The translations under genes and the position numbers were made by a program. The notes under the pieces are model-generated. The model saw only the letters and a program-made list of their open reading frames with translations. It had not been told where the DNA came from and did not search any database. A DNA stretch of 64,000 nt from Amycolatopsis albispora (GTDB lineage: Bacteria > Actinomycetota > Actinomycetes > Mycobacteriales > Pseudonocardiaceae): assembly GCF_003312875.1 (NCBI RefSeq), contig NZ_CP015163.1, positions 5,456,001 through 5,520,000 on the forward strand, read 5' to 3'. Every line of letters starts with the position of its first letter. Position 1 is the stretch's first letter. Below, piece by piece: positions 28,923 through 57,032 of this stretch.

Positions 28923-30454
28923 CCCCGGCCTCACTCAACGCCGCGCGGCGCGAGGCGGACCTGGCGCGCGTGGCCGGCGGCGAACGGTTCGACCTCGCGG
29001 TGGTCGGCGGCGGGGTGACCGGCGCGGGCATCGCGCTGGACGCGGCCGCGCGCGGGCTGTCGGTGGTCCTGCTCGAAGCGGACGACCTGGCGTTCGGCAC
29101 GTCGCGCTGGTCGAGCAAGCTGGTCCACGGCGGGCTGCGCTACCTGGCCAAGGGCGATTTCGCGCTGGCGCACGAGAGCGCGGTCGAACGCGGCATCATG
29201 ATGACCGTCACCGCGCCGCACCTGACGCGTACGCTGCCGCAGCTCTTTCCGTTGCACACCACGACTTCGCGCGCACAGCAGGGCGTGATCGCGGCCGGGC
29301 TCCAGGCAGGCGACGTGCTCCGGCGCGTCACGCGCACGCCGGGCCGTGTGCTGCCGCGTCCTCGCACGATCACCCGGCACGAAGCGCTCGCGCTGGCCCC
29401 CGGGCTGCGCCGCAACGGCCTGCGTGGCGCGCTGCTGTCGTTCGACGGCGCACTCACCGACGACGCGCGCCTGGTGGTGGCGCTGGCGCGCACCGCCGCG
29501 TCGCACGGCGCGCGGATCCTGACCAGGGTGCGCGCGACGAAGCTGCTGGCCGACCGGGTGCAGGCGACCGACGAGCTGAGCGGGCAGACGCTGGAGGTCC
29601 AGGCGCGGCAGGTGATCAACGCGACCGGGGTGTGGGCCGGGGAGCTGGTCGACTCGGTGCGGTTGCGGCCTTCGCGGGGTTCGCACCTGATCCTGCGCGG
29701 CGCGGCGGCGGGCACGAGCGTCAGCTCGGTGATGATCGGCGTGCCCGGGGAGACCAACCGGTTTGTCTTCCTGCTGCCGCAGCCGGACGGCAATGTCTAC
29801 TTGGGACTGACCGACGAGCCGGTCGACGGCCCGGTCCCCGCCGTGCCAACGGTTCCCGAGTCCGATGTGGACTTCCTGCTGGAGGTGGCCTCGTCAGCAC
29901 TGGCCCGGCGCCTGACCACCGACGACGTGATCGGCCGGTTCGCCGGGCTGCGGCCGTTGGTTTCGGGTGGCGGGCGGAGCGCGGACCTCTCGCGCAAGCA
30001 CGCCGTGCTGCGCTCGCCGGACGGCGTGCTCACCGTGGTCGGCGGCAAGCTGACCACCTATCGCCGCATGGCCGCCGACGCGGTAGACGCGGCGGGGCTG
30101 CCCGCGGGCCCGTCCACCACGGACAAGCTGCCCCTGGTCGGCGCGGCGCCGCGGGCTCGTTTGTCCACTGTGGATGCCCCGAGGCGGCTGATCCTGAAGT
30201 ACGGCACGGAAGCGCCACGGATCGCGGCCATCGGCGAACTGGACCCGGCACTTGCGGAGCCGGTGTTCGACGGCAGCGAGATCACCGGCGCCGAGGTGGT
30301 CTGGGCCGTCCGCCACGAAGGCGCCCTCGACGTCGATGACGTCCTGGAGCGGCGGACCCGCCTGGGCCTGGTCCCAGCGGACGCCGCGGCAGCCCGGGAA
30401 CGCGTCGCCGATTTGGTGGACCGCTCCCTACGAGGCCTGCCCACCCCCACCTAA
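28919..30454 (+). CDS. glpD: Glycerol-3-phosphate dehydrogenase (FAD, aerobic type)
   Basis: 511-residue membrane-associated flavoenzyme that oxidises sn-glycerol-3-phosphate to dihydroxyacetone phosphate and passes electrons to the quinone pool. The N-terminal FAD motif is DLAVVGGGVTGAGIALDAAA, followed by the family signature FGTSRWSSKLVHGGLRYLAK. GGKLTTYRRMAADA and a C-terminal helical domain follow. The GTG start overlaps the TetR stop by 4 bp. The enzyme's product is the substrate class of alkylglycerone-phosphate synthase, which fits the divergent flavoprotein. Confidence 0.93.
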   Translation: MTPASLNAARREADLARVAGGERFDLAVVGGGVTGAGIALDAAARGLSVVLLEADDLAFGTSRWSSKLVHGGLRYLAKGDFALAHESAVERGIMMTVTAPHLTRTLPQLFPLHTTTSRAQQGVIAAGLQAGDVLRRVTRTPGRVLPRPRTITRHEALALAPGLRRNGLRGALLSFDGALTDDARLVVALARTAASHGARILTRVRATKLLADRVQATDELSGQTLEVQARQVINATGVWAGELVDSVRLRPSRGSHLILRGAAAGTSVSSVMIGVPGETNRFVFLLPQPDGNVYLGLTDEPVDGPVPAVPTVPESDVDFLLEVASSALARRLTTDDVIGRFAGLRPLVSGGGRSADLSRKHAVLRSPDGVLTVVGGKLTTYRRMAADAVDAAGLPAGPSTTDKLPLVGAAPRARLSTVDAPRRLILKYGTEAPRIAAIGELDPALAEPVFDGSEITGAEVVWAVRHEGALDVDDVLERRTRLGLVPADAAAARERVADLVDRSLRGLPTPT

Positions 30455-32672: not shown

Positions 32673-33868
32673 ACCCCAACCACTCGGCGAGCGGCTTCAC
32701 CGCGGTCCGGCTGGTCGCGCAGCGCGAGCTGAACACCCGGCTGCGAACCAGGTCCTTCGTCATCGGCACCGTGCTGATCCTGGCCTTCCTCGGCGGTTAC
32801 GTGCTGCTGCAGGCCTCGTTGTTCAGCGGCGCGGACAAGCAGACGGTCGGCCTGGCCGGGCAGACCGGGAGCATCGCGGAAACCCTGAAGCAGCAGGGAA
32901 AGCAGCTCGGCGAGGAGATCGAGACGGTCACCGTCACCAATCCCGACGAGGCCCGCGCCCAGATCGAGAACGACGACCTCGACGCGCTGCTCACCGGCAG
33001 CCCCGGCGACCTCCAGGTCCTGGTGAAAACCGAGCTGGACCCGCAGCTGGGCGCCATGCTGAACCAGATCGCGCAGAACGAGGTGCTGGTCGGCGAGCTG
33101 GCGCAGGCCGGCGCCGATCCCGACCAGGTGCTGGCCACCGTGCAGAGCAAGACGGTCAAGGTGGACCAGCTCGAGCAGCCCGACCCGGAACGCGGCCAGC
33201 GCCTGGCCATCGGGCTGGCCATGGTCGTGCTGCTCTACATGAGCATCACCACCTACGGCACGATGGTCGCGCAGGGCGTGGTCGAGGAGAAGTCCAGCCG
33301 AGTGGTGGAGATCCTGCTGTCCACCGTGCGCCCGTGGCAGCTGCTGCTCGGCAAGGTGATCGGCCTCGGCCTGGTCGGCCTGGTGCAGTTGCTCATCCTG
33401 GCCGGGGCCGCGCTGGCGATGACCACGGTGTCCGGGGTGATCACGCTGTCCGGCGTGGCCACCGGCACGATTCTGTGGGGCCTGCTCTGGTACCTGCTCG
33501 GCTTTTTCCTCTACGCCACCATCTTCGCCGCGGCCGGCGCGCTGGTTTCACGGCAGGAGGACATGCAGTCGACGATGATGCCGGTGACCATGGTGCTGCT
33601 GATCGGCTTCCTGGTCGGCTTCAACGTGCTCATCCAGAACCCGGAAAGCGGGCTGGCCGCCGGGCTGTCGCTGGTGCCGCTGCTCTCGCCGGTGCTGATG
33701 CCGGGCCGGATCGCGGCCGGGGTGGTCAGCGGCTGGGAGGTCGCGCTGGCGCTGGTGCTCACCGTCGCCGCGGTGGCCCTGTTCACCTGGCTGGGCGGCA
33801 AGATCTACCGCAACGCCGTGCTCCGCACCGGCAGCCGGGTCAAGCTGGCCGACGCGCTCAAGGGCTGA
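32669..33868 (+). CDS. ABC-2 type permease (NatB-like)
   Basis: 399 residues. One N-terminal membrane helix (SFVIGTVLILAFLGGYVLLQ) is followed by a large extracytoplasmic domain (about residues 50-170) and five or more C-terminal helices including MSITTYGTMVAQGVVEEKSS and VVEILLSTVRPWQLLLGKVI, the conserved ABC-2 motif of NatB. It is the membrane half of the exporter encoded with the preceding ATPase. Its 3' end overlaps the convergent photolyase gene by 11 bp. Confidence 0.92.
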   Translation: MNPNHSASGFTAVRLVAQRELNTRLRTRSFVIGTVLILAFLGGYVLLQASLFSGADKQTVGLAGQTGSIAETLKQQGKQLGEEIETVTVTNPDEARAQIENDDLDALLTGSPGDLQVLVKTELDPQLGAMLNQIAQNEVLVGELAQAGADPDQVLATVQSKTVKVDQLEQPDPERGQRLAIGLAMVVLLYMSITTYGTMVAQGVVEEKSSRVVEILLSTVRPWQLLLGKVIGLGLVGLVQLLILAGAALAMTTVSGVITLSGVATGTILWGLLWYLLGFFLYATIFAAAGALVSRQEDMQSTMMPVTMVLLIGFLVGFNVLIQNPESGLAAGLSLVPLLSPVLMPGRIAAGVVSGWEVALALVLTVAAVALFTWLGGKIYRNAVLRTGSRVKLADALKG

Positions 33869-35216
33869 GTTCGCCGTAGCGTTCCAGTGCCACCCGGCGT
33901 TCGTGGGCGTGCTCGACCACGGGCGCCGGGTAGCCGTCCGGCGGGCCCGCTTTCCACGGCTGGTGCACGGTTTTGCCGGACAGACCGGCCAGTTCGGGCA
34001 CATACCGCCGGACGTAGTCGCCCTGCGGGTCGAACTTCTCGCCCTGGGTGGTCGGGTTGAAGATCCGGAAGTAGGGCGCGGCGTCGGTGCCGCTGCCCGC
34101 CACCCACTGCCAGTTGAGCTGGTTCGAGGCGAGGTCGCCGTCGACCAGGTGCCGCATGAAGTGGCGCGCACCCCACCACCACGGCAGGTGCAGGTCCTTG
34201 ACCAGGAAGCTGGCCACGATCATCCGCACCCGGTTGTGCATCCAGCCCTCCGCGAGCAGCTGCCGCATCCCGGCGTCCACTACGGGATAGCCGGTGCGGC
34301 CCTGGCACCAGGCCTCGAACGCCGAGCGCGCGGCGGGGCCGGTCTCCAGCTTCATCGCGTCGAACTTGGTGTTGTAGTTGCGGCGCGCGGTTTCCGGCCG
34401 GTGCCAGAGCACGTCCGCGTGGAATTCGCGCCACGCCAGTTCGGCGCGGAACGCCTCGTCCTCGTCGCCCAGTTCGGCGAGCAGCGTGCGCGGGTGCACG
34501 CAGCCCCAGCGCAGGTAGGGCGACAACCGGCTGGAGGCGTCGAGGTCCGGCCGGTCGCGCCGGTTGTCGTAGTCGGGCAGCGCCTCGTCGCGAAAGTGAT
34601 CCCATGCCGCCAGCGCGGCCCGCTCCCCCGGCTCGGGCAGTGTCATGGAACCCAGGTCGGGTGCGTCCGGGATGTCCACGCCGGACAGGCCGTCCGGGTC
34701 GATCCAGTCCACTGTGGACGCCGAGGTGTCGGCCGGGGACGGCCAGCCGTGCCGCAGCCAGGCGCGGAAGAACGGGGTGAACACGCGATACGGCTCGCCG
34801 TCCGGTTTTGTCACGCGGCCGGGGGTGATGGCGTACGACGATCCCGTCTCCACCCAGTCGACGCCGCGGCGCCCCAGCTCCGCGGCGACCTCCTGGTCGC
34901 GCCGCCTGCCGTAGGGCGCGGTGTCGGCGTGGACGTGCACGCTGCCCGCGCCGATCGCCTCGGCCACCTCGGGCACCGCCCGGACCGGATCGCCGTGAAC
35001 CACCAGCAGGCGCCCGGAAAGCTGCTCGTCGAGCGCACGCAGGCAGCCGGACAAGAACGCCGTTCTAGGCGCGCCGGAGGGTTTCAGCAGGGCGTCGTCG
35101 AGCACGTAGAGCGCGAGCACGCGGCTCGCCGACTTCGCCGCGGTGAGCAGCGCCGCGTGGTCACCCAGCCGCAGATCCCGGCGGAACCACAGGATCGCCG
35201 GTGCGTTCTCGGCCAT
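33858..35216 (-). CDS. phr: Deoxyribodipyrimidine photolyase
   Basis: 452-residue light-dependent DNA repair enzyme that splits UV-induced cyclobutane pyrimidine dimers with FADH. The N-terminal antenna domain begins AILWFRRDLRLGDHAALLTA. The C-terminal FAD domain carries TGYPVVDAGMRQLLAEGWMH, NRVRMIVASFLVKDLHLPWW and WQWVAGSGTDAAPYFRIFNP, all class I signatures. The upstream gap contains a nested inverted repeat (35231-35265) and the structured element A. It is probably transcribed alone. Confidence 0.94.
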   Translation of the reverse strand: MAENAPAILWFRRDLRLGDHAALLTAAKSASRVLALYVLDDALLKPSGAPRTAFLSGCLRALDEQLSGRLLVVHGDPVRAVPEVAEAIGAGSVHVHADTAPYGRRRDQEVAAELGRRGVDWVETGSSYAITPGRVTKPDGEPYRVFTPFFRAWLRHGWPSPADTSASTVDWIDPDGLSGVDIPDAPDLGSMTLPEPGERAALAAWDHFRDEALPDYDNRRDRPDLDASSRLSPYLRWGCVHPRTLLAELGDEDEAFRAELAWREFHADVLWHRPETARRNYNTKFDAMKLETGPAARSAFEAWCQGRTGYPVVDAGMRQLLAEGWMHNRVRMIVASFLVKDLHLPWWWGARHFMRHLVDGDLASNQLNWQWVAGSGTDAAPYFRIFNPTTQGEKFDPQGDYVRRYVPELAGLSGKTVHQPWKAGPPDGYPAPVVEHAHERRVALERYGELSP

Positions 35217-35230
35217 GCCCGGAAACGATA

Positions 35231-35265
35231 TTGCCCCCGAACGCGGTTCGCACGCTCAGGGGCAA
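35231..35265. promoter_or_regulatory. Nested inverted repeat upstream of phr
   Basis: Outer arms TTGCCCC (35231-35237) and GGGGCAA (35259-35265) enclose an inner hairpin, CGAAC-GCG-GTTCG (35238-35250). It lies 14 bp upstream of the phr start, so it may be a leader structure or an operator. It is not part of element A, because element B has no equivalent. Confidence 0.4.
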
Positions 35266-35280
35266 CACCAAGAACACTCC

Positions 35281-35393
35281 GCGAGATCGCGCCGGCCACT
35301 GGAGTGGGCCGCGACAGGCCGCCCAGCGGCATGGCGTGGTCCGCTCCAGTGGCCGGCTCAAAAGCGATCTCGCCGCCGCGCCGGAGGCGCGGC
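35281..35393 (+). repeat. Structured repeat element, copy A (beside gltA)
   Basis: Read on the + strand: helix P1 of 10 bp (35281-35290 with 35364-35373) encloses helix P2 of 23 bp including three G-U pairs (35291-35313 with 35335-35357). P2 is capped by a small hairpin, GCCGC-CCA-GCGGC (35318-35330). One base after P1 comes an 8-bp hairpin, P4 (35375-35382 with 35386-35393, loop GGA). Copy B at 56920-57032 has the same lengths and junctions. The element ends 4 bp from the gltA stop, antisense to gltA. Function unknown. Confidence 0.75.
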
Positions 35394-35397
35394 AGAA

Positions 35398-36711
<1,314 letters not shown>

Positions 36712-55771: not shown

Positions 55772-56920
55772 GTGACGACAGCGCCGGTATCACCAGCACC
55801 CGCACCTGCGGACGAAACGGACGACGGCTTCCGCCCGGGGCTGGAAGGCGTGGTCGCCTTCCGGACCGAAATCGCCGAACCGGATCGTGACGGCGGCGCC
55901 CTGCGCTACCGCGGGGTGGACATCGAGGACCTGGCCGGCAAGGTCACCTTCGGCGACGTCTGGGGCCTGCTGGTCGACGGCCGCTTCGGCCAGGGCCTGC
56001 CGCCCGCGGAGGCCTTCCCGATCCCGGTGCACACCGGCGACGTCCGCGTCGACGTGCAGGCCGCGCTGGCCATGCTCGCGCCGATCTGGGGTTACCAGCC
56101 GCTGCTGGACATCACCGACGAAGAGGCCCGTGACCAGCTGGCCCGCGCCTCGGTGATGGCCCTGTCCTACGTCGCGCAGTCCGCGCGCGGGATCGGGCAG
56201 CCCGCGGTGCCGCAGTCGCGCGTCGACGAGGCTGCCACGATCACCGAGCGGTTCATGGTCCGCTGGCGCGGCGAGCCGGATCCCGCGCACGTCAAGGCCG
56301 TGGACGCGTACTGGGTTTCGGCCGCCGAGCACGGGCTGAACGCCTCCACCTTCACCGCCCGCGTGATCGCGTCGACCGGCGCGGACGTGGCGGCGGCGAT
56401 GTCGGGCGCGATCGGCGCGATGTCCGGGCCGCTGCACGGTGGCGCGCCCGCGCGCGTGCTGCCGATGATCGCCGAGGCCGAGCGCACCGGCGACGCGCGT
56501 GCCGTGGTCAAGGGCATTCTCGACCGCAAGGAGCGGCTGATGGGCTTCGGGCACCGGGTCTACCGGGCCGAGGACCCGCGGGCCCGCGTGCTGCGCCGGA
56601 CCTGCCAGGAGCTGGGCGCCGAGCGGTATGAGGTGGCCGCCGCGCTGGAGCAGGCCGCGCTGACCGAGCTGCGTGAACGCCGCCCCGACCGCGCGATCGA
56701 GACGAACGTGGAGTTCTGGGCCGCGGTCATTCTCGACTTCGCGCAGGTCCCGCTGCACATGATGCCCGCGATGTTCAGCTCGGCGCGCACCGCCGGCTGG
56801 GCCGCGCACATCCTGGAGCAGAAGAAGACCGGCCGCCTGGTGCGCCCGTCGGCCAAGTACGTCGGCCCCGGCCCGCGTCAGCCGGAAGAGGTCGAAGGCT
56901 GGGCCTCGCTGAACCGGTAG
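55772..56920 (+). CDS. citA: Second citrate synthase (CitA type)
   Basis: 382-residue citrate or 2-methylcitrate synthase-like enzyme without the N-terminal extension of GltA. Motifs are LEGVVAFRTEIAEPDRDGGA, GALRYRGVDIEDLA, AIGAMSGPLHGGAPARVLPM, LMGFGHRVYRAEDPRARVL and FWAAVILDFAQVPLHMMPAM. It resembles the actinobacterial CitA paralogue. It begins at GTG with AAAGG 10 nt upstream. The final G of its stop codon is the first base of structured element B. An NADH- or propionate-linked role cannot be resolved from sequence. Confidence 0.92.
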   Translation: MTTAPVSPAPAPADETDDGFRPGLEGVVAFRTEIAEPDRDGGALRYRGVDIEDLAGKVTFGDVWGLLVDGRFGQGLPPAEAFPIPVHTGDVRVDVQAALAMLAPIWGYQPLLDITDEEARDQLARASVMALSYVAQSARGIGQPAVPQSRVDEAATITERFMVRWRGEPDPAHVKAVDAYWVSAAEHGLNASTFTARVIASTGADVAAAMSGAIGAMSGPLHGGAPARVLPMIAEAERTGDARAVVKGILDRKERLMGFGHRVYRAEDPRARVLRRTCQELGAERYEVAAALEQAALTELRERRPDRAIETNVEFWAAVILDFAQVPLHMMPAMFSSARTAGWAAHILEQKKTGRLVRPSAKYVGPGPRQPEEVEGWASLNR

Positions 56921-57032
56921 GGAGGTCGCGCCGGTCAACGGAGGGAGGCGCGACGGGCCGCCCAGCGGCACGGCGTGTCTTCCTCCGTTGACCGGCTCAA
57001 CGGCGACCTCCCCGCCTCGCCGGAGGCGAGGC
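56920..57032 (+). repeat. Structured repeat element, copy B (beside citA)
   Basis: Same architecture as copy A: P1 of 10 bp (56920-56929 with 57003-57012), P2 of 23 bp with G-U pairs (56930-56952 with 56974-56996), cap hairpin GCCGC-CCA-GCGGC (56957-56969), a 6-nt 3' junction, one spacer base, and P4 of 8 bp (57014-57021 with 57025-57032, loop GGA). Helix differences from copy A are paired compensating changes. It overlaps the citA stop by one base and the 3' end of the TetR gene. Function unknown. Confidence 0.75.

What the first reader, a model, noticed from the sequence alone, without database searches (positions are those of the whole stretch)
35281..35393. Two copies of a nested-hairpin element with compensating base changes (copies A and B)
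Element A (35281-35393) and element B (56920-57032) have the same plan: P1 10 bp, P2 23 bp, a cap hairpin GCCGC-CCA-GCGGC, a 6-nt 3' junction, one base, and P4 8 bp with a GGA loop, all with identical lengths. The loop core is nearly invariant (two transitions), but the helices differ at nine paired positions, each change matched by its partner. Two are in P1, three in the perfect part of P2, three in its extension, and one in P4. Single-sided changes occur only as G-C/G-U swaps. The G-U pairs form only if the + strand is the RNA, which hints at the functional strand. Conserved structure with variable sequence is the hallmark of a selected RNA or of a structured mobile element.
Basis: partly seen in the sequence, partly recalled or inferred. 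Interest (0 to 1): 0.88.

Follow-up and report, generated by a model that had tools for sequence, protein, structure and literature searches.

The report
Widespread mobile nested-hairpin element in actinobacteria
The two nested hairpins belong to an apparently undescribed family of small, structured, probably mobile DNA elements scattered between genes in many actinobacteria, whose stems differ almost completely from copy to copy yet stay paired around a constant internal loop.

Summary
In detail: A and B fold identically and differ by ten two-sided pair changes. They are two of 28 full copies in this 9.1-Mb genome. Copies lie in 12 of 60 genomes searched (own included, one genus), in seven named genera found by a loop pattern, and in 39 of 120 genomes of another family. 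No Rfam family matches. The unit is about 140 bp: GACCACAA-like start / P1 / P2 / purine internal loop (CUGGACUGAG / GAGGGAAG) / P3 / P1' / P4 hairpin with C-GNA-G triloop / AAAAACACAG-like end. In 35 sequences 40 of 42 pairs change on both sides while the loop is nearly invariant; in A and B it is replaced by perfect stem. G·T outnumbers A·C mispairs 125 to 42, so the + strand is the folding strand. One young copy has clean empty sites in seven other species. Among very close copies half of the changed pairs changed on both sides, far above independence, so part of the 'compensation' is probably copied arm to arm or by conversion. Best reading: a non-autonomous mobile element recognised through its folded + strand. 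No mobilising gene was found (no Y1 transposase in 40 of 40 genus genomes). RNA versus single-stranded DNA is undecided.

The parts
35272..35404 (+). Element A with its presumed terminal sequences (5' GAACACTC, 3' AGAATTATCGA)
   Evidence: Family profiles around P1 and P4; bases; exact ends not proven
35281..35290 (+). A, P1 5' arm (pairs with 35364-35373)
35291..35313 (+). A, P2 5' arm (pairs with 35335-35357); 35299-35307 CTGGAGTGG lies where loop-type copies have the internal-loop strand CTGGACTGAG, here fully paired
   Evidence: equivalence read by eye
35314..35334 (+). A, apical cap hairpin (GCCGC CCA GCGGC) with the co-varying A35316-T35332 pair
35358..35363 (+). A, 6-nt 3' junction (TCAAAA) between P2 and P1
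35375..35393 (+). A, P4 hairpin with C-GGA-G triloop
56920..57043 (+). Element B with 3' tail AAAAGACACAG; its first base is the last base of the TAG stop codon (56918-56920) of the upstream reading frame
   Evidence: reading frame (L044)
57014..57032 (+). B, P4 hairpin with C-GGA-G triloop
35398..36726 (-). Citrate synthase gene; P4 of A ends 4 bases beyond its stop codon
   Evidence: ORF; the citrate synthase family is among the neighbours matched
33858..35216 (-). DNA photolyase gene on the other side of A

Best explanation
A and B are copies of a roughly 140-bp non-autonomous mobile element. Its + strand, single-stranded at some step (ssDNA or RNA), folds into a long P1/P2/P3 hairpin plus a short P4 hairpin. 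An unknown trans-acting enzyme probably recognises that fold through the near-constant purine internal loop, the C-GNA-G hairpin P4 and the partly conserved ends, and puts copies into intergenic DNA, where they are seen mostly beside gene 3' ends. After insertion the helices drift, but they stay paired because arms are rewritten from each other (template switching) or whole hairpins are converted. In this genome most copies, A and B included, have lost the internal loop this way and are probably inactive relics. Shown: the fold, the family, partly conserved ends, + strand asymmetry, one clean insertion, remnants left by hairpin deletion in a relative. Inferred: the enzyme, its recognition of the loop, the single-stranded step, the arm-copying mechanism and the inactivity of A and B.
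For: 28 full copies in the genome. Patchy spread: 12 of 60 genomes, own included, all in one of 23 genera; 7 of 296 class genomes, own included; 39 of 120 genomes and 27 of 68 genera of family f31. Partly conserved ends: ACACAG within one mismatch 5-6 bases after P4 in 59 of 96 copies (17 of 3168 control positions); ACCACA within one mismatch at -7 in 25 of 96, next best position 5. At the G026_L103 site seven other species have two convergent, overlapping reading frames with no insert, where G026 has about 170 extra bases; G360 shares the insert. Young near-identical copies in G026. Arms compared without wobble bias in 95 of 96 copies: G·T 125 vs A·C 42, G·A 143 vs C·T 8. A7: 40 of 42 pairs with two-sided changes, score 0.51 vs 0.13 shuffled and at most 0.07 slid. 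Loop positions 0.89-1.0 conserved. P4 loop C-GNA-G in 89 of 96 and 30 of 35; 0 of 10 triloop hairpins elsewhere in the window. Tandem genes: sense 24, antisense 23 in Amycolatopsis. 113 neighbour proteins show no recurrent partner.
Against: No mobilising gene identified: no Y1 transposase match in 40 genomes, reverse transcriptases present but heterogeneous, Y2 search uninformative because no control rang. The clean empty site is one locus, and the insert is about 30 bases longer than the element, with no recognised target duplication. A G026 subfamily shares more flank than the 140 bp, so the ends are not settled; the 5' end is only weakly conserved. Outside Amycolatopsis tandem copies lean to sense, 14 vs 4 and 9 vs 5, which would suit an RNA. 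The GNA-triloop argument for DNA is recalled and is not in the energy tables used. Internal-loop conservation is partly ascertained (searched for it); loop-less copies exist in f31 too (L314).
Confidence: 0.5

Rival explanations
1. A cis-acting structured RNA: the + strand is transcribed at gene ends, and the internal loop binds a protein that sets mRNA 3' ends or stability; dispersal is a by-product.
For: G·T is tolerated far more than A·C. Tandem copies outside Amycolatopsis lean to sense, 14 vs 4 of 30 and 9 vs 5 of 24 (my tally). In Amycolatopsis the divergent arrangement is the rarest clear one: 8 of 96.
Against: No sense bias in Amycolatopsis, 24 vs 23. A is antisense to both its neighbours. 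No marked conservation from -30 to -9 upstream. No T-run after P4. The closest relative shows only two, P2-less, matches.
Confidence: 0.2
2. An RNA-mediated (SINE-like) retroelement copied by a host reverse transcriptase.
For: The fold strand is fixed. All 12 carrier genomes have an RT match, against 16 of 24 non-carriers among the 36 genomes in both calls (my tally). Tandem 3' halves occur in several genera.
Against: The RTs differ in length and score and none is evidently shared by all high-copy carriers. The P1'-P4 pattern showed no solo 5'-truncated copies beyond a tandem half and internally deleted forms. No promoter-like conservation.
Confidence: 0.12
3. No recognised function: passive palindromes whose arms are kept complementary only by replication template switching and gene conversion, so the covariation is mutational.
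For: In 22 disjoint close pairs there are 50 two-sided and 50 one-sided changes, against 5.4 two-sided expected under independence. A paired 1-bp indel between orthologous copies. L061 has a 3' arm that is the exact complement of the loop's 5' strand; L062 and G024_L072 keep the loop's 3' strand with a largely complementary 5' arm. G004 has remnants with P2 deleted.
Against: Arm copying would erase the internal loop, yet it occurs in seven genera and at 0.89-1.0 per position in 35 sequences (partly ascertained). G·T over A·C asymmetry is not expected of a strand-blind process. Partly conserved ends and GNA loops.
Confidence: 0.18

Closest known systems
REP elements with RAYT (Y1) transposases, and IS200/IS605-derived MITEs (recalled)
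   Same: Short intergenic imperfect hairpins, one strand being the recognised one, many copies, gene 3' ends favoured
   Different: No Y1 transposase match in 40 of 40 genus genomes; larger two-hairpin plan; conserved purine internal loop
BOX (Streptococcus) and bcr1 (Bacillus cereus group) structured intergenic repeats (recalled)
   Same: Dispersed units of 100-160 bp with conserved folded structure, compensatory changes and mobile-element behaviour
   Different: Different phylum and plan; here the helices differ almost completely between genera while the internal loop and a GNA hairpin stay
DDE-type MITEs (recalled)
   Same: Small, non-autonomous insertions
   Different: Ends, as far as defined (GACCACAA-like / AACACAG-like), are not inverted repeats; no target duplication recognised
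Template-switch generated hairpins / quasipalindrome correction (recalled; the paper could not be opened)
   Same: Explains two-sided changes and paired indels in very close copies
   Different: Does not explain the conserved internal loop, the ends or the strand asymmetry

Membership tests
IS200/IS605 or REP/RAYT | Y1 (PF01797) transposase in the genome | tested here: not met
   No match in 40 of 40 genus genomes; controls rang in 5 of 14
IS200/IS605 or REP/RAYT | Hairpin with a 4-nt guide/cleavage sequence at its foot | tested here: inconclusive
   Partly conserved ends exist; pairing with a guide was not shown
DDE MITE | Terminal inverted repeats | tested here: inconclusive
   Consensus ends are not inverted repeats, but the exact ends are not proven
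DDE MITE | Target-site duplication | tested here: inconclusive
   One clean empty site, no duplication recognised
IS91/Helitron-like | Y2 transposase | tested here: inconclusive
   0 of 40, but no control rang
Any Rfam family | Covariance-model match at gathering score | tested here: not met
   No family at gathering score in the window; element-bearing loci of several genera gave no element match at gathering score
Intrinsic terminator | Hairpin followed by a T-run on the same strand | tested here: not met
   P4 is followed by an A-rich tail, consensus CAAAAACACAG
BOX/bcr1-like structured repeat | Dispersed intergenic copies with conserved fold and compensatory change | tested here: met
BOX/bcr1-like structured repeat | Sequence homology to BOX or bcr1 | not tested
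   No BOX or bcr1 sequence was fetched
Retroelement | Dependence on a reverse transcriptase | not testable with these tools
   RT matches in 30 of 40 genomes, heterogeneous

The most novel reading that the evidence does not exclude
A mobile-element family spanning several orders of Actinomycetes that is defined by a folded core (two tandem G·A motifs in an internal loop plus a C-GNA-G mini-hairpin) and not by the sequence of its helices, is mobilised as single-stranded DNA or RNA by an enzyme type not yet linked to such elements, and keeps its helices paired by copying one arm from the other, so that textbook covariation arises largely by mutation.
Probability: 0.35. Interest if true: 0.87.

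Novelty: new variant of a known kind. Interest (0 to 1): 0.7.

Why it matters
If mobile and fold-recognised, this is a lineage-wide element family with no known enzyme, outside the Y1 system used by REP elements. It also gives a natural test case for a practical problem: covariation is the standard evidence for functional RNA, yet here two-sided changes appear between nearly identical copies, so templated mutation can mimic it. The strand asymmetry of G·T versus A·C mispairs is a simple control that may separate the two and could be used elsewhere.

Tried and rejected
Rfam at gathering and relaxed thresholds: on the elements only sub-threshold microRNA-precursor scores; other matches lie elsewhere in the loci. 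Reverse transcriptase as mobiliser: 30 of 40 genomes, no single kind evident in all high-copy genomes. Y2 transposase: no hits, but uninformative. Partner gene next to copies: 113 neighbour proteins scanned (of 120 picked, seven left out), 156 families, none in more than 5 members, no transposase among the 25 listed. One query or pattern each against plasmids, phages and viral contigs: no match. Recent gain in this genome as the reason G004 lacks the copies: rejected because G004 keeps P2-less or P4-only remnants at three of the loci that I could read. Replication-strand bias: by eye from the positions, taking the contig start as origin (unverified), no consistent bias; G026 alone looks biased. 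Arm-origin statistics for perfect copies: classes were 22 loop-type, 49 perfect with 5'-like arm, 2 from the 3' arm, 23 unassigned of 96, and the excess was modest (mean 5' match 5.98 vs 5.23 shuffled; 3' match 4.31 vs 4.52), so the claim rests on a few clean examples. The first close-pair count (45 two-sided, 24 one-sided) conditioned on both copies pairing and was replaced by the unconditioned one.

Rows dropped before counts: 96 of 152 model matches were kept (reverse-strand shadows, P2-less mini forms and partial matches left out); 95 of 96; 23 of 32 loop-pattern matches in A5. For A7 I gave 35 loci and got 35 rows from 34 of them; among the f31 loci I left out L308, L314 and L325, and L314 is a copy whose loop has become perfect stem, so the loop conservation is a little flattered. 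Seven A7 rows also stand in the model's own alignment, and A7 is fitted to the model's structure.

Full report
Observation. A and B are real, lie at the stated coordinates, and fold identically (48 pairs) with energies that none of 200 shuffles reached, as RNA and as DNA. They differ by ten two-sided changes, two G-C/G-T swaps and two changes at unpaired bases. P4 of A ends 4 bases beyond the citrate synthase stop codon, with a photolyase gene on the other side; A is antisense to both. The first base of B is the last base of an upstream stop codon.

The family in this genome. The loop core of A and B occurs 13 times with the full plan (one search lists 15 matches within 3 mismatches; the last two, L014 and L015, do not fold as the element). 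A pattern for P1' and P4 found further copies with other loops. A covariance model from 22 copies finds 28 full copies (E 2.4e-9 or better) plus reverse-strand shadows and P2-less mini forms. No Rfam family matches at gathering score.

Relatives. The same model finds copies in 12 of 60 genomes (own included), all in one of 23 genera, and in high number only in some: G028 31 matches, G026 20, G034 9, G024 8, G012 7. I compiled 96 copies. Their ends are partly conserved: ACACAG within one mismatch 5-6 bases after P4 in 59 of 96 (control 17 of 3168 positions), and ACCACA within one mismatch seven bases before the model start in 25 of 96 (next best position 5). From -30 to -9 no marked conservation is seen across all copies, but a G026 subfamily shares longer flanks on both sides, so the unit of about 140 bp is approximate. 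P4 closes with C-GNA-G in 89 of 96 copies; 0 of 10 triloop hairpins elsewhere in the window do.

A second, probably ancestral, form. In some copies (22 of 96 by the rule; a string match lists 26) P2 and P3 are separated by an internal loop, 5' CTGGACTGAGCG / 3' CGGGAGGGAAG, which can form two tandem G·A pairs split by C-G and U·G. In the window's genome only L064 and L066 keep it, and L062 its 3' strand. A scan of GTDB species genomes for that loop gave 28 stretches in Amycolatopsis, Actinokineospora, Nocardia, Rhizocola, Allorhizocola, Phytohabitans and Rhizohabitans, that is in Pseudonocardiales, Micromonosporales and Streptosporangiales (for three of the genera; the placement of the others, with Nocardia in a fourth order, is recalled). 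Outer helices there are often different, yet the plan P1-P2-loop-P3-P1'-P4 is kept in most, by eye. Of 32 matches I aligned 23: 29 of 42 pairs change on both sides and none of 500 shuffles reached any of the five measures. A model from these hits 7 of 296 genomes of the class, own included, at E 1e-5, and 39 of 120 genomes, 27 of 68 genera, of family f31 at E 1e-4. In 35 sequences from 34 loci, 40 of 42 pairs change on both sides, 309 cells two-sided, covariation score 0.51 against 0.13 shuffled and 0.04-0.07 for slid structures. Loop positions and the G and A of P4's GNA stay at 0.89-1.0. Conservation of the loop is in part ascertained, because it was searched for and because I left out L314, a loop-less f31 copy; the covariation of the helices is not, but that alignment was fitted to the model.

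Which strand folds. Comparing arms with a scoring that does not favour wobble, 95 of 96 copies give G·T 125 against A·C 42 and G·A 143 against C·T 8. In the window's genome, where few copies keep the loop, G·T is 67 against 17. A process blind to strand would give equal numbers, so the + strand fold is constrained.

How the compensation arises. In 22 disjoint pairs of similar copies (at most 16 differences), counting every position paired in either copy, 50 positions changed on both sides (46 still paired) and 50 on one side; independence predicts 5.4 and 139. G026_L100 and L103 differ at three pairs, all two-sided, and nowhere else. At one orthologous site G026 and G360 differ by a one-base-pair indel present in both arms and by a paired C-G/T-A change in P2. 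L061 carries the loop's 5' strand with an exactly complementary 3' arm; L062 and G024_L072 carry the loop's 3' strand with a largely complementary 5' arm. At another shared site G012 has a P2 block nearly identical to one that G026 carries elsewhere, which looks like conversion. I infer that arms or whole hairpins are rewritten in single events, on top of selection that keeps the internal loop.

Gain and loss. At the G026 copy L103, seven other species (G010, G001, G028, G029, G383, G386, G009) have two convergent reading frames that overlap at their ends and no insert; G026 has 176 bases between the left stop and the shared right flank, against about 5. G360 shares the insertion. The insert is about 170 bp, longer than the element, with no recognised target duplication. 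In the other direction, the nearest relative of the window's genome (G004, 97% identical over a 503-base citrate synthase query) has no full copy at the 12 of 14 orthologous sites that I could read and only two, P2-less, matches in the whole genome. Those two keep P1 and P4 with P2 neatly missing, and a third site keeps P4 and tail. The copies of this genome are therefore older than that split and can be lost by hairpin deletion.

Context. With a crude reading-frame caller, Amycolatopsis copies sit mostly beside gene 3' ends: 24 convergent, 24 tandem sense, 23 tandem antisense, 8 divergent, 17 unclear of 96. Elsewhere tandem copies lean to sense: 14 to 4 of 30 (my tally) and 9 to 5 of 24. Neighbour proteins share no partner family (113 of 120 scanned). 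No Y1 transposase matches in 40 of 40 genus genomes, with controls ringing in 5 of 14; reverse transcriptases are common but mixed; the Y2 search is uninformative. No hit on plasmids, phages or viral contigs (one query or pattern each).

Interpretation. Patchy multi-copy spread, partly conserved ends, a clean insertion and random orientation to transcription in the window's genus point to a non-autonomous mobile element. The fixed + strand fold, the near-constant internal loop and the GNA hairpin point to recognition of a folded single strand. I lean to single-stranded DNA, because C-GNA-G loops are, from recall, exceptionally stable in DNA and not in RNA, but the energy tables used do not contain this, and the sense lean outside Amycolatopsis leaves RNA open. 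A and B, with perfect stems in place of the internal loop, are probably relics. The closest known kinds are REP/RAYT, BOX and bcr1 repeats (all recalled). I do not file it in any of them.

Verdict. Observation confirmed, interpretation partly supported and extended: an apparently undescribed, lineage-wide structured mobile family. Whether it is in print could not be checked, since every literature call timed out.

Noticed in passing
35231-35265 and orthologous sites L138-L150: Beyond the citrate synthase gene several other Amycolatopsis species carry an unrelated near-perfect hairpin (ATGAA.GG...) whose stem sequence differs greatly between species while staying paired; the window's genome has a GC-rich hairpin TTGCCCC...GGGGCAA there. 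Possibly the same arm-rewriting process.
   Followed up: no
L048/L023, L070, L072, L093, L225, L232, L242, L317, L319: Part or all of the 3' half (P1' arm, P4 and tail) is repeated in tandem beside many copies, in several genera.
   Followed up: partly
L228 (G275) downstream of the element: Tandem 3' halves run into a reading frame and would be translated as a threefold N-terminal repeat (MSDEGRRRSPAPEPRRAASQSAQR...) of a small protein, after a gene that looks like enolase (names by look, no family search).
   Followed up: no
G026 copies, positions: In G026 copies between 1.1 and 5.1 Mb are mostly + and those between 5.9 and 8.2 Mb all -, which may be a replication-strand bias; not seen by eye in G000, G028 or G034.
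   Followed up: no
L134:3260-3392: TPP riboswitch match just below the gathering score (52.2 vs 54.3) next to an element copy.
   Followed up: no
28963-29059: tRNA-Arg (GCG) gene in the window.
   Followed up: no
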